NCBI RefSeq assembly: GCF_030690045.1
Contig: NZ_JAUYHK010000011.1
Location: 558,001 to 622,000 of the forward strand
Length of the DNA: 64,000 bases
Direction of reading: 5' to 3'
Source of the DNA: Thalassospira sp.
GTDB taxonomy: Bacteria; Pseudomonadota; Alphaproteobacteria; Rhodospirillales; Thalassospiraceae
Position numbers and translations under genes: made by a program. The notes under the pieces were generated by a model. That model saw only the letters and a program-made list of their open reading frames with translations, was not told where the DNA came from and did no database searches. Below, in pieces: positions 50,089 through 53,534 of the stretch (within the stretch, counting starts at the first letter, position 1; every line of letters begins with the position of its first letter).

Positions 50089-51141
50089 TCAAGCCGAACC
50101 CAGCCGTTCCAACCCGTATTTCCGATCCAGTATCGGTTGCCACCAGTCGCGCCGGGCCATATACCACGCCACGGTTTCACGCAGACCGCGGGCAAGATCA
50201 TATTGCGCCCGCCAGCCCAGTTCATCCCTGATTTTTGACGCATCAATCGCATAACGCCGGTCATGGCCGGGGCGATCCGGCACAAAGGTAATCAGATCAT
50301 CGGCATGGCGCACCGGAATATCGGGCGCACATTCCAGCACAGCCGCAAAAATCCGGCGGACCATGTCGATATTGCGGGATTCGTTATGGCCGCCGACATT
50401 ATAGGTTTCGCCCGCCCGGCCCTTTTCAACAATCAGCCTTAACGCCCGTGCATGGTCATCGACATGCAACCAGTCGCGCACATTGCCGCCATCGCCATAC
50501 ACCGGCATGGATTGCCCGGACACAGCATTCAGGATCATCAAGGGCACAAATTTTTCGGGGAACTGATACGGCCCGTAATTGTTGGAGCAGTTGGAAACAA
50601 TCACCGGCAAACCATAGGTATGATGCCACGCCCGCACCAGATGATCGGACGCCGCCTTGCTGGCCGAATAGGGCGATGTCGGGCGATAGGGACTGGTTTC
50701 ATCAAACAACCCTTCATCCCCCAACGCCCCATAAACCTCGTCAGTCGAAATATGATGAAACCGGAACGCCTTCTGGCGTGGCCCCGGCACGCCGCGCCAA
50801 TATTCCAGTACCGCCATCAGCAATTCATACGTACCGACAATATTGGTCTGCACAAACACACCCGGCCCGTCAATCGACCGGTCCACATGGCTTTCAGCCG
50901 CCAGATGCATGACCGCATCGGGTTGAAACCGCGCCAAGGCATCACGAATCGCCGCACGGTCACCGATATCGGCCTGCACAAATTGATAATCGCGGTGGGT
51001 TTCAATATCGCGCAAGGATCGCAGATCAGCGGCATAGGTCAGCTTGTCGATATTCAAAACCTGCCAGCCGCATTCCCCCACCAGATAACGGCATAGCGCC
51101 GATCCGATAAACCCCGCACCGCCCGTCACCATCACCCGCAT
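50089..51141 (-). CDS. rfbB: dTDP-glucose 4,6-dehydratase
   Basis: A 350-residue extended short-chain dehydrogenase. The NAD-binding [21 protein letters not shown] and the catalytic YSASK are intact, with [17 protein letters not shown] and RDWLHVDDH typical of RfbB/RmlB. It makes dTDP-4-keto-6-deoxyglucose for rhamnose or other deoxysugars in surface polysaccharides. The ATG at 51141 has AAGG nine bases upstream; the 90-residue N-terminal extension of the longest ORF is not family-like. rmlA, rmlC and rmlD are not in the window, so the gene is isolated here. Confidence 0.94.
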
Positions 51142-51389
51142 TGCCAATACCTTTGTCCCGTTGGTCTTTTCTCTTGTGCGACAGCGAAACACCGAAAAAT
51201 GGCCCGGAAAAGGCAATCCGGGTATCGGTCCATATCGACAAGCGGGAAAATTTCGTGTGGTTGTCGTTGCGGTCGCGATGGTTATTTTGACCGTTGCCAT
51301 AGCCCCCATGATACTCAACCCTTTGATTTTAAGCCGTTTTTGGTCGGGTAGCGGTGCGCCTGTAAAGTTTTTCAGATTTTTTGAAAAAA
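51142..51389. other. Region upstream of rfbB, no confident gene
   Basis: This 248-base stretch must hold the rfbB promoter. On the plus strand an ORF at 51161-51397 (TTG or GTG start) encodes a hydrophobic stretch that could be one membrane pass, but it has no ribosome site and ends in AT-rich codons, so I do not call it. The last 20 bases are A/T-rich with an imperfect TTTTTCA / TGAAAAA dyad. Confidence 0.5.
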
Positions 51390-51404
51390 GTTCTTGATTT
51401 GTTC
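51390..51404 (+). promoter_or_regulatory. LexA box (alphaproteobacterial type), copy 1
   Basis: GTTC-N7-GTTC (GTTCTTGATTTGTTC) is an exact match to the alphaproteobacterial LexA consensus. It overlaps a candidate promoter with -35 TTGATT (51394-51399), a 17-base spacer and -10 CATAAC (51417-51422), so bound LexA would block polymerase. A near-identical copy lies at 52342. Confidence 0.75.
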
Positions 51405-51428
51405 TTTTCACTGTGGCATAACAGAAAA

Positions 51429-51490
51429 GTCAAGGGGATAAATCCGCCCGGACCGAAACCCGCAAGGCCTTGTGCCTTGCGGGTTTTTTC
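51429..51490 (+). ncRNA. Candidate SOS-controlled small RNA or terminated leader
   Basis: The transcript is predicted from the promoter at 51394-51422 to the intrinsic terminator at 51457-51490, about 62 nt with no start codon. The 5' part is A-rich, and the 3' part is a 10-12 bp hairpin plus T6. It could be a small RNA or an attenuated leader for the 35-codon ORF beyond. I recognise no RNA family. Confidence 0.45.
51457..51490 (+). terminator. Strong intrinsic terminator inside the SOS locus
   Basis: Stem CCCGCAAGGC / GCCTTGCGGG with loop CTTGT is followed by six T residues. No protein gene lies between the LexA-box promoter and this hairpin. Confidence 0.9.
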
Positions 51491-51513
51491 GTTTGGGCCA
51501 GAGGAAAGAGGCG

Positions 51514-51621
51514 ATGATGATGCAGCGATATAAAGACAGACAAGGCGGCGGGCGAACCACCCGCAAAATCATGACCGGCGGATGGAGAAGCCATTACGGG
51601 GGCATTCTGCCGGTCCGCTAA
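51514..51621 (+). CDS. Candidate 35-residue small protein behind the SOS promoter
   Basis: The ORF reads MMMQRYKDRQGGGRTTRKIM then TGGWRSHYGGILPVR and stop. It is basic, Gly-rich and not hydrophobic. A strong GAGG (9 bases) and AGAGG (2-8 bases before the three tandem ATGs) precede it. Expression from the LexA-box promoter would need read-through of the terminator 24 bases upstream. I recognise no homologue. The ribosome site is the main support; chance cannot be excluded. Confidence 0.4.
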   Translation: MMMQRYKDRQGGGRTTRKIMTGGWRSHYGGILPVR

Positions 51622-52341
51622 CCCGGCCATTTGTCAGGACGCCCGAATTGCGTCTTGTCGGTGGCGTCCTGCCCGGATCGTGCCGGGAGCCATCCGGTCT
51701 TGCCGGGGGTGGCAGGAGCGGGTGGTGGGTCCGTTGGTGAGGCTGACGGATGCCCGAGGTGCGCCTTGTGGCTGGCCGTGCCTGCCCGGATCTCGTGGCG
51801 GGAGCTGTCGGCCTTGCCGGGGGTGTTGGTACGGCGGGCGGAAGCCCGAAGTGTGTCCGGTTCCCGTGATTGCGGGAAAGGCGGGTTGTGGCCGGGCCGT
51901 CTTGCGGCGGGTTCGGTGTGATCGGGGCGAAAGCCCGGCGGTGGAAGGAAGACCCAAGCCTGCATTTTCGGATGCGGCTTGTGAGGCAGACGGGGGTATG
52001 GGCGCCATATCAGGTACCCCTGATGGAGCCGCACCAAAATCCCACGGGGGTAGTCCGTCTTGTGTGCATCGGTCCTGCCCGGTTAGCGATTCGGGGGCCA
52101 TCACAGCCGTTATATGGCGGTTTTCCGGGGCGGAGGGGTGTAGTGCGGCAACTTTACCGGTTGTTTTCATGGATCAGGATTGATTGCTGAAAGCGAGTCG
52201 GCGACGCCAGATTTTTTGATCTCATTAATCAAGGGTGATCATTGAAATGACAGGGTGCCACAACCGCGAAAGCGAGGGCATGGTGCGGCGGGGCCGGTTG
52301 GCGGCAAGGGCGAAGACACGGGGAATTTATTTCGCTTGAAT
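51622..52341 (+). other. G-rich, repeat-containing, hairpin-rich region with no credible protein gene
   Basis: This 720-base stretch is G/T-rich on the plus strand. Several long overlapping ORFs on both strands lack ribosome sites and have low-complexity Pro/Arg/Gly/Cys products. An imperfect repeat with 111-base spacing starts at GCCCGA 51641 and 51752, with a partial third copy at 51844. Hairpins include CCCGG / CCGGG (51672-51687), CGGGC-GGAA-GCCCG (51835-51848), TTCCCG / CGGGAA (51861-51878) and GGGC-GAAA-GCCC (51925-51936). Two of these have GNRA loops. It does not contain the conserved P4 core of RNase P RNA or a tmRNA tag. A structured RNA is possible. Confidence 0.5.
51641..51870 (+). 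repeat. Imperfect tandem repeat, about 111 bp, two and a half copies
   Basis: Copies starting at 51641 and 51752 share GCCCGA, TGCG(T/C)CTTGT, CTGCCCGGATC, CGGGAGC and CTTGCCGGGGGTG in the same order, with small indels. A partial third copy begins at 51844 (GCCCGAAGTGTGTCCGG). Each full copy includes a CCCG / CGGG hairpin. Confidence 0.6.
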
Positions 52342-52356
52342 GTTCTTATTTTGTTC
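52342..52356 (+). promoter_or_regulatory. LexA box (alphaproteobacterial type), copy 2
   Basis: GTTC-N7-GTTC (GTTCTTATTTTGTTC) lies 14 bases before the radical SAM ATG. With three more T residues it matches copy 1 at 51390 in all but two bases. A -35-like TTGAAT (52336-52341) abuts it. Confidence 0.8.
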
Positions 52357-52370
52357 TTTAGGTTGGTCCC

Positions 52371-53534
52371 ATGCAAAACACCCTCAAACCACCATCCGAT
52401 CATGCAGGAAGGACCCTGCCCGGCGAAGGCTGGAGCCATCCGGATTTCGACCCGGACCTTTTGCCTGCACGTAGGCAAAAGGGGCGCGGGGCGGTATCGA
52501 ATATGGATGGTCGTTACGAGAAATTCAGCCATCAGGCCCGTGATGATGGCTGGATGTCCGGGCTGGTGGAAGAGGCCGATCCGCCGCGCCTCAAGACCAC
52601 CCTTGGCATTGATGGGGCGCGCAGCGTCATCACCCGCAATCAAAGCCCGGATGTGCCGTTTGACCGGTCGATCAACCCTTATCGCGGTTGTGAACATGGT
52701 TGCATCTATTGTTTCGCCCGCCCCACCCATGCGTGGCTTGGCCTGTCGCCGGGGCTGGATTTTGAAACGAAACTGTTCTGGAAACCCGATGCGCCAAATC
52801 TTTTGCGCCAGCAACTTGCGGCGCGCAGTTACCAACCAGCAACCATCGTGATTGGCACCAATACCGATCCCTATCAACCGATTGAACGGGACAAAAACCT
52901 GACCCGGCACATTCTTGAGGTTCTGGCCGATTGCCGTCATCCCTTTTCGCTGATCACCAAATCCGCGCTGGTGACCCGCGATATTGATGTCATCGCGCCA
53001 ATGGCGGCCCAAAACCGTGCCTCGGTCGCCATTTCAGTCACCAGCCTTGACCACCGGTTATCCAATTTGTTGGAGCCACGCGCATCCGCCCCGCATCGCA
53101 GGCTTGAAGCGATCCGCAAGCTCAGCACGGCGGGTATTCCGGTTATTGCCCTGTGCGCCCCGATCATTCCCGGATTGAATGACAGCGAAATTGAAAATCT
53201 TGTCGCCGCCTGTGCCGATGCCGGGGCGCAATCGGTTTCGCATATTGTGGTGCGCCTGCCGCTGGAAATTGCCGGATTGTTTGAGGAATGGCTGGAAACC
53301 CATTATCCTGACCGCAAGGACAAGGTGATATCCCTGATCCGGCAAATGCGCGGCGGCAAGATTTACGACGCGCAATTTGGCACCCGCATGCGTGGCACTG
53401 GCCCGATTGCCGATCTGATCGCACAACGCTTTGCCCTGGCCCGGCGCAAACACGGGTTGACCGGACGGTCGCTTGACCTTGATTGCAGCGGGTTCAAACG
53501 CCCAAGTGCCGACGGGCAGATGTCGTTATTTTGA
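52371..53534 (+). CDS. Radical SAM protein, PA0069 / spore-photoproduct-lyase-like family
   Basis: A 387-residue cytoplasmic enzyme. The 4Fe-4S motif CxxxCxxC is at Cys107, Cys111 and Cys114 in YRGCEHGCIYCFARPTH, and the rest fits the SplB-related PA0069 family (GTNTDPYQPIERD, SLITKSALVTRDID, APIIPGLND). No reaction is established for this family; spore photoproduct lyase is a distant DNA-repair relative. The ATG has AGG eight bases upstream and a LexA box just before it, so DNA-damage induction is likely. It is convergent with tyrS, 15 bases away. Confidence 0.92.
   Translation: MQNTLKPPSDHAGRTLPGEGWSHPDFDPDLLPARRQKGRGAVSNMDGRYEKFSHQARDDGWMSGLVEEADPPRLKTTLGIDGARSVITRNQSPDVPFDRSINPYRGCEHGCIYCFARPTHAWLGLSPGLDFETKLFWKPDAPNLLRQQLAARSYQPATIVIGTNTDPYQPIERDKNLTRHILEVLADCRHPFSLITKSALVTRDIDVIAPMAAQNRASVAISVTSLDHRLSNLLEPRASAPHRRLEAIRKLSTAGIPVIALCAPIIPGLNDSEIENLVAACADAGAQSVSHIVVRLPLEIAGLFEEWLETHYPDRKDKVISLIRQMRGGKIYDAQFGTRMRGTGPIADLIAQRFALARRKHGLTGRSLDLDCSGFKRPSADGQMSLF

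What the first reader, a model, noticed from the sequence alone, without database searches (positions are those of the whole stretch)
51390..52356. Two near-identical LexA boxes 952 bp apart bracket an uncharacterised locus
GTTC-N7-GTTC occurs at 51390-51404 and 52342-52356. Over 18 bases from the first G the copies differ at two positions. This consensus is well known for LexA in alphaproteobacteria. The first overlaps a promoter for a non-coding transcript, and the second lies just before a radical SAM gene. Such conservation between two sites suggests a dedicated DNA-damage unit.
Basis: partly seen in the sequence, partly recalled or inferred. Interest (0 to 1): 0.72.

Follow-up and report, generated by a model that had tools for sequence, protein, structure and literature searches.

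The report
SOS boxes: one lone, one repeated
The two DNA-damage control sites are real, but they belong to two different things: one looks like the known switch of a repair-type gene, the other sits in a small genetic element scattered some thirty times through this marine bacterium, with a promoter matching that of an inherited virus-like gene cluster.

Summary
Both GTTC-N7-GTTC boxes are present as described, and this motif also precedes lexA and recA in this Thalassospira genome, so it is the SOS-type box. The "dedicated unit" reading fails. Box 2 is a solitary box before a PA0069-family radical SAM gene, conserved in 28 of 29 Thalassospira genomes; SOS control of such splB-type genes is in print. 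Box 1, GTTCTTGATTTGTTC, occurs 30 times in this genome (reversed control 0). It contains a -35 and is followed by a -10, a conserved start region and a terminator-like hairpin; 25 of the 30 copies then have a complete ORF of 32-38 aa with the motif ..W[KR]xHYGG... Six of 29 Thalassospira genomes carry 21-30 copies, three carry two, 20 carry one. In 28 of 29 a copy lies 3.1-4.7 kb before the capsid gene of an inherited podovirus-like cluster. Best reading: an SOS promoter-plus-early-terminator module shared between the resident phage-like cluster and a dispersed small-gene family. LexA binding, induction, read-through and the peptide's role are inferred.

The parts
51315..52258 (+). one copy of a dispersed repeat element: promoter, hairpin, small ORF, GC-rich tail (ends approximate)
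   Evidence: similarity to at least three other copies spans about -75 to +868 around the box; no match in the phage or plasmid collections
51390..51404 (+). SOS-type box 1, GTTCTTGATTTGTTC, core of the family
51394..51399 (+). -35 element TTGATT inside the box
   Evidence: 17 bp from the -10; read on 122 distinct copies that were selected by the exact 15-mer
51417..51422 (+). -10 element CATAAC
51427..51434 (+). conserved start region (consensus AARTCAAC; here AAGTCAAG)
   Evidence: 98% or more at each of the first seven positions (R at the third) and 90% C at the eighth, in 122 copies; shared with the phage-like cluster
51446..51498 (+). terminator-like hairpin some 20 nt after the inferred start; inner stem 51455-51487 followed by T-rich DNA
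   Evidence: -39.9 kcal/mol, z -4.7; hairpin plus T-run in 121 of 122 copies against 38 of 110 control windows
51500..51511 (+). likely ribosome-binding site AGAGGAAAGAGG
   Evidence: sequence
51514..51621 (+). 35-aa ORF MMMQRYKDRQGGGRTTRKIMTGGWRSHYGGILPVR
   Evidence: no Pfam or NCBIfam family
51622..52258 (+). GC-rich tail of the element
   Evidence: the tail of one relative (L125) is a tandem array of 106-109 bp units
52342..52356 (+). SOS-type box 2, GTTCTTATTTTGTTC, inferred operator of the radical SAM gene
   Evidence: conserved in 28 of 29 genomes
52371..53534 (+). PA0069-family radical SAM gene
   Evidence: NF033668 499 bits, cut-off 360
50089..51144 (-). dTDP-glucose 4,6-dehydratase, neighbour of the element, not part of it
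   Evidence: TIGR01181 over its cut-off

Best explanation
Two independent members of the SOS (LexA) regulon happen to lie side by side. Box 2 is the operator of a PA0069/SplB-type radical SAM gene. Box 1 is the operator of a sigma-70 promoter whose -35 lies inside the box, so bound LexA should block RNA polymerase. Transcription from it soon meets a strong hairpin with a T-run, so the default product should be a short RNA; read-through would give a cationic peptide of about 35 aa with the motif ..GGW[KR]SHYGG.. and a long GC-rich tail. The same promoter-leader module precedes an inherited podovirus-like structural cluster (portal, scaffold, capsid, tail, terminase, GTA-type holin) in Thalassospira, and in six species it also heads a dispersed family (16-37 peptide hits per genome). 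DNA damage should therefore release the cluster and the elements together. Shown by sequence: the module, its copy number and distribution, the gene order, the coding pattern of the C-terminal motif. Inferred: LexA binding, termination and read-through, origin of the dispersed module from the cluster, function of the peptide.
For: lexA and recA carry the same motif. Box 2 is conserved in 28 of 29 genomes. Box 1 15-mer: 30 exact copies; 29 of 29 Thalassospira genomes have at least one; in 28 of 29 one lies 3.1-4.7 kb before the capsid gene on the same strand (coordinates; G028 not visible in the cut listing). Outside the genus 25 hits in 268 genomes against 2 reversed, 6 of 19 loci read being radical SAM genes of five families. 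Copies chosen by the peptide rather than the box: 66 assessable of 69 given, 57 exact, 6 with one mismatch, 1 with two, 2 without. -35/-10 spacing 17 and start region conserved. Hairpin plus T-run in 121 of 122 copies, control 38 of 110; z -4.7 to -6.6 in the four leaders folded. Codons of W[KR]SHYGG vary at silent positions. Peptide hits: 37, 17, 19, 19, 16 and 20 in six genomes. Cluster content and shared flanks.
Against: No binding or expression data. The 15-mer of the family is more invariant than the boxes of lexA, recA and the radical SAM gene, which may mean a second protein reads it. An S24-type repressor gene stands near the cluster and could be the true regulator. pN/pS of the ORF is only 0.60 in own copies and 0.72 in others, on sequences picked by their motif. 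RNAalifold over 46 leaders gives only 4 consensus pairs with no two-sided change: a hairpin is present in nearly every copy but not in one alignable form. In 16 of 19 clusters outside Thalassospira no box passing my filter stood at the head of the cluster; three of those 16 had one elsewhere in the stretch.
Confidence: 0.72

Rival explanations
1. Box 1 is the loading site of a phage-type processive anti-terminator (like lambda Q, AlpA or GafZ), or an operator of the S24-type repressor near the cluster, rather than a LexA operator; the early hairpin is the terminator that such a factor overrides.
For: Promoter plus immediate terminator-like hairpin plus conserved start region in front of a phage-like cluster. 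In Caulobacter the putative GafZ element lies between -35 and -10, like those of Q and AlpA (passages of PMC11150451). S24-type repressor gene near the cluster. The 15-mer is more invariant than other SOS boxes here.
Against: The same 15-mer stands before PA0069 radical SAM genes in genomes of five other families, and it fits the box motif of lexA and recA. No Q or GafZ relative was sought. LexA repression and anti-termination may both operate.
Confidence: 0.2
2. The dispersed element is a non-autonomous mobile repeat that captured an SOS promoter; peptide and tail are passengers or transposition parts.
For: 16-37 peptide hits in each of six genomes; copies reach about 900 bp in this genome and several end at contig ends. 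One site is filled in G007, G008 and G019 and empty in G027.
Against: Many places are stable: of 23 exact-box loci of G008, 12 share both flanks and 5 one flank with a G027 locus, and one matches only a non-corresponding flank; another locus is shared by five species. Tail lengths differ. Terminal repeats and target duplications were not tested.
Confidence: 0.3
3. The element is a type I toxin-antitoxin-like unit: SOS promoter, structured leader, tiny protein.
For: SOS-type promoter, leader hairpin, multicopy ORF under 60 aa.
Against: The peptide is cationic with no evident hydrophobic span, unlike known type I toxins (recalled); no antisense promoter was sought.
Confidence: 0.1
4. One reading: boxes 1 and 2 bracket one dedicated DNA-damage unit.
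For: Two good boxes 952 bp apart on one strand.
Against: The element recurs at some thirty other places. In 28 of 29 Thalassospira loci of the radical SAM gene no box-1 15-mer lies in the fetched stretch, while box 2 stays in 28 of 29. The hairpin should end the first transcript early.
Confidence: 0.03

Closest known systems
SOS-regulated splB-type radical SAM gene of alpha- and betaproteobacteria (PMC3323433, passages read)
   Same: box 2: GTTC-N7-GTTC operator before a radical SAM gene (PA0069 family, NF033668); that PA0069 is the splB of that paper is my inference
   Different: nothing essential; here the box is shown conserved across Thalassospira
Mycobacterium tuberculosis 13E12 family, placed with the LexA-regulated repair genes in PMC4181829 (passages read)
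   Same: a multicopy gene family linked to an SOS regulon
   Different: 13E12 genes are described there as HNH-endonuclease-domain genes; here the gene encodes a peptide of about 35 aa behind a promoter shared with a phage-like cluster
Caulobacter gene transfer agent with GafY/GafZ anti-termination (PMC11150451, passages read)
   Same: phage-like cluster with a regulated promoter and a downstream terminator
   Different: structural genes here are podovirus-type, the box is SOS-type, the hairpin lies before the first gene, and the module is copied around the genome
Podoviruses with a related capsid, such as Pelagibacter phage HTVC010P
   Same: capsid similarity over nearly full length: listed Pelagibacter phages 30-46% identical; the closest record is an unannotated 'Bacteriophage sp.' at 62%
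   Different: here one chromosomal copy per genome at a shared place, with no integrase among the 20 ORFs scanned

Membership tests
Alphaproteobacterial LexA (SOS) box | direct repeat GTTC-N7-GTTC | tested here: met
   both sites exact
Alphaproteobacterial LexA (SOS) box | same motif before lexA and recA of the genome | tested here: met
Alphaproteobacterial LexA (SOS) box | placed so as to block a promoter | tested here: met
   by sequence only: box 1 contains the -35; box 2 lies just before the start codon, at -29 in 22 of 29 loci
Alphaproteobacterial LexA (SOS) box | LexA binding and induction by DNA damage | not testable with these tools
   needs the bench
PA0069-family radical SAM protein | family model above its curated cut-off | tested here: met
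   NF033668, 499 bits against 360
Gene transfer agent (in general) | inherited cluster at a shared chromosomal place | tested here: met
   seven Thalassospira genomes compared: inositol monophosphatase and S24-repressor genes lie upstream in G000, G004, G008, G010 and G018; G005 shows only the repressor in the stretch, G002 neither; capsid in 29 of 29 Thalassospira and 149 of 297 of the order
Gene transfer agent (in general) | no integrase or replication genes of its own | tested here: inconclusive
   20 ORFs of the cluster and flanks, 10 from each of two genomes, scanned with Pfam, none an integrase; not every ORF was scanned
Gene transfer agent (in general) | particles packaging host DNA | not testable with these tools
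   needs the bench
RcGTA-type gene transfer agent | RcGTA-type head and tail genes | tested here: not met
   family models only: capsid PF19821, portal PF12236, T7-type terminase NF033889; the holin does match PF11351. No direct comparison with RcGTA proteins was run
Type I toxin-antitoxin | small hydrophobic toxin | tested here: not met
   cationic peptide without an evident hydrophobic span, judged from its letters
Type I toxin-antitoxin | antisense RNA partner | not tested
   no antisense promoter sought
Insertion sequence or MITE | terminal inverted repeats and target duplications | not tested
   element ends known only roughly from similarity

The most novel reading that the evidence does not exclude
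Thalassospira carries a podovirus-derived gene-transfer-agent lineage, widespread in its order, that LexA represses directly, and six species have copied its promoter-terminator module to 20-30 chromosomal places, so that DNA damage fires a genome-wide set of tiny peptides and short RNAs in step with particle production; these elements may serve or exploit the particles, for instance as cargo, immunity or packaging marks.
Probability: 0.22. Interest if true: 0.87.

Novelty: new variant of a known kind. Interest (0 to 1): 0.6.

Why it matters
If right, one short operator would tie a conserved, apparently inherited virus-like cluster and about thirty dispersed small genes to the DNA-damage response of a marine genus. 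That gives a simple test (one mitomycin C RNA-seq) of whether an inherited phage-like cluster can be under direct SOS control, and a rare case of a regulatory module copied across a genome. Box 2 extends a known result: the SOS-type box of the PA0069/SplB radical SAM gene is kept through Thalassospira.

Tried and rejected
The bare GTTC-N7-GTTC count is no evidence, being near chance. Rfam: two sub-threshold hits, one a snoRNA family over the promoter-hairpin, taken as chance. Covariation over 46 leaders: 4 pairs, none with a two-sided change, so no covariation is claimed. The tail as a structured RNA: z-scores from -2.1 to +0.9 over five pieces, not convincing; Tandem Repeats Finder found no array in the window copy. 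Phage and plasmid collections: no match to the element. Viral contigs: 35 hold the 19-mer GTTCTTGATTTGTTCTTTT; they entered the class counts only and were not studied further. Literature: the listings of searches showed no paper that I recognised as describing this module or an SOS-boxed podoviral cluster in Thalassospira; beyond listings I read only passages (PMC10582014, PMC11150451, PMC3323433, PMC8565304, PMC7739468, PMC10783043, PMC4181829, PMC6821227), so this is a weak absence. In PMC6821227 I saw the table row for Rhodospirillales with zeros, not its column heads; I make no claim from it.

Selection to bear in mind: one search uses copies chosen by the exact 15-mer, so its 100% columns there are by construction; one search is the fair count. 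In one search I gave 34 of the 37 own peptide hits, leaving out three partial ones; 3 more of the 34 were too close to a contig end. In one search, 19 of the 25 outside hits were read. In one search only boxes with at least five A or T in the spacer were printed; in 6 of the 19 outside loci no portal was found in the stretch. Classes rest on motif searches in all three frames. The 15-mer search of the order drew 297 genomes from a larger group. Positions are counted from the start of the window protein as extrapolated, not from each annotated start.

Full report
Observation. The pattern itself is common: 130 hits in 4.23 Mb against 94 for the reversed pattern. The full 15-mer of box 1 is not: 30 exact copies, none for the reversed string.

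The motif is the local SOS-type box. The lexA gene has GTTCTACTTTGGTTC just upstream of the matched frame, and recA has GTTCCTTTTATGTTC about 147 bp upstream of the matched frame. GTTC-N7-GTTC as the alphaproteobacterial LexA motif is stated in PMC3323433 (passages).

Box 2. The gene at 52371-53534 encodes a PA0069-family radical SAM protein. It is in 29 of 29 Thalassospira genomes. A GTTC-N7-GTTC box precedes it in 28 of 29, at -29 in 22; the 29th, G018, has GTTTCTGTTTTGTTC. Outside the genus, the exact box-1 15-mer was found in 22 of 268 genomes of the order, 25 hits against 2 for the reversed string; in 6 of the 19 of these loci that I read, a PA0069-type gene follows, 23-24 bases after the box (in L260 an earlier in-frame start also exists). 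SOS control of splB-type genes in alpha- and betaproteobacteria is in print (also Bacteroidetes, PMC8565304, passages). Box 2 is therefore of a known kind.

Box 1 belongs to a dispersed family. All 30 exact copies in this genome were read. In 25 the similarity to other copies runs to +313 or beyond, two (L023, L035) share only promoter and hairpin (to about +110), and three are cut by contig ends at +171 to +175. The window copy runs from about 51315 to 52258. 25 of the 30 have a complete ORF of 32-38 aa with the motif W..HYG. A profile of it finds 37 hits in this genome and 17, 19, 19, 16 and 20 in five others, one weak hit with stops in G021, and none in 22. A pattern-based scan of named genomes found six loci, all Thalassospira. 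Copies chosen by the peptide keep the box: of 66 assessable, 57 exact, 6 with one mismatch, 1 with two, 2 without. The motif W[KR]SHYGG varies at silent codon positions while the residues stay, but overall pN/pS is only 0.60 and 0.72, on sequences chosen by that motif. Only in the window's genome, 1 of 29, does a box-1 15-mer lie in the stretch fetched around the radical SAM gene, so the pairing of the two boxes is local.

Anatomy of the module. Over 122 distinct Thalassospira copies selected by the 15-mer, a -35 (TTGATT) lies inside the box, a -10 (cATAA) follows at 17 bp, then AARTCAAC near the expected start and CCCG at the base of a hairpin. A hairpin with a T-run is found in 121 of 122 leaders against 38 of 110 control windows further downstream. 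Four leaders were folded: z -4.7, -6.6, -4.7 and -4.8. The hairpin sequence differs among groups, and RNAalifold shows no two-sided change.

The same module heads a phage-like cluster. 20 of 29 Thalassospira genomes have exactly one exact 15-mer, three have two, six have 21-30. In 28 of 29, one copy lies 3.1-4.7 kb upstream of, and on the strand of, the capsid gene (coordinates; G028's listing was cut). The own cluster holds a T7-type terminase, portal PF12236, scaffold PF05396, capsid PF19821, tail proteins and a GTA_holin_3TM protein, and an S24-type repressor gene lies upstream. Many of its genes are found in the same order in seven genomes compared; an inositol monophosphatase gene and the repressor gene flank it in five of them, G005 showing only the repressor and G002 neither in the stretch fetched. 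The capsid occurs in 149 of 297 genomes of the order, mostly once, at 49-72% identity outside the genus among the rows listed. Its closest record in the phage collection is an unannotated phage at 62%; listed Pelagibacter phages have 30-46%. Of 19 loci outside Thalassospira, 13 had a recognisable portal in the stretch, and three (L343, L344, L350) had a strong SOS-type box (GTTCTTCATTTGTTC, GTTCTTCTTTTGTTC, GTTCTTGTTTTGTTC) near the start of p161, the gene at the head of the cluster. SOS control of this cluster may thus recur but is not general.

Turnover. Of 23 exact-box loci in G008, 12 share both flanks and 5 one corresponding flank with a G027 locus; one more matches only a non-corresponding flank. 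Behind the tRNA gene next to an rpoD-like gene end, G007, G008 and G019 have an element and G027 has none. At a second locus the distance between the flanks is about 1.05 to 1.97 kb among five species, in keeping with a tail that in one G027 copy is an array of units of 106-109 bp.

Mechanism. Shown: the sequence anatomy, the distribution and the coding pattern of the C-terminal motif. Inferred from established knowledge of LexA: binding over the -35 blocks the promoter until RecA-stimulated cleavage. Inferred: the hairpin ends most transcripts, so the ORF needs read-through. A promoter followed by a terminator in a phage-like cluster recalls Q-, AlpA- and GafZ-type anti-termination (passages of PMC11150451); whether a dedicated factor acts here is open. 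Since at least 28 of 29 genomes have the cluster copy and only six have the dispersed set, the cluster copy is probably the older one.

Verdict. The finding is real but mis-framed. Box 2 is ordinary. Box 1 opens on an unusual multicopy SOS-type promoter family linked to an inherited phage-like cluster; its function is not known and its SOS control is untested.

Noticed in passing
G000:C8 about 204100-226100 (L241, L057) and orthologues: Podovirus-like structural cluster with a GTA-type holin at a shared chromosomal place; its capsid is in 149 of 297 genomes of the order. It may be a gene-transfer-agent lineage.
   Followed up: partly
L343, L344, L350 (other families of the order): Strong SOS-type boxes near the start of p161, a conserved gene without a match in Pfam, PHROGs or NCBIfam, next to an S24-type repressor gene at the head of the cluster.
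   Followed up: partly
L125:3222-4607 (G027): Tail of one element is an array of 106-109 bp units, about ten copies; purpose unknown, RNA folding not convincing.
   Followed up: partly
L145 (G005) and L188 (G006): The same promoter-hairpin module stands before an ORF that looks like a multi-span membrane transporter (family not tested).
   Followed up: no
L186 (G001:C23, about 770): The module stands before two small ORFs that may be a toxin fragment and its partner; resemblance recalled, not tested.
   Followed up: no
L175 (G008) and L183 (G027): Divergent orthologous copies with the exact 15-mer but TTTT instead of AAAA upstream and a changed leader; L183 lacks a terminator-like hairpin.
   Followed up: no
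L254 and L263 (outside Thalassospira): The exact 15-mer stands before ORFs of 195 aa and 254 aa that are not radical SAM genes by the search used; possible further SOS genes.
   Followed up: no
L272-L306 (viral contigs): 35 viral contigs hold the 19-mer GTTCTTGATTTGTTCTTTT; several are 16-20 kb long, perhaps the cluster called as a provirus.
   Followed up: no
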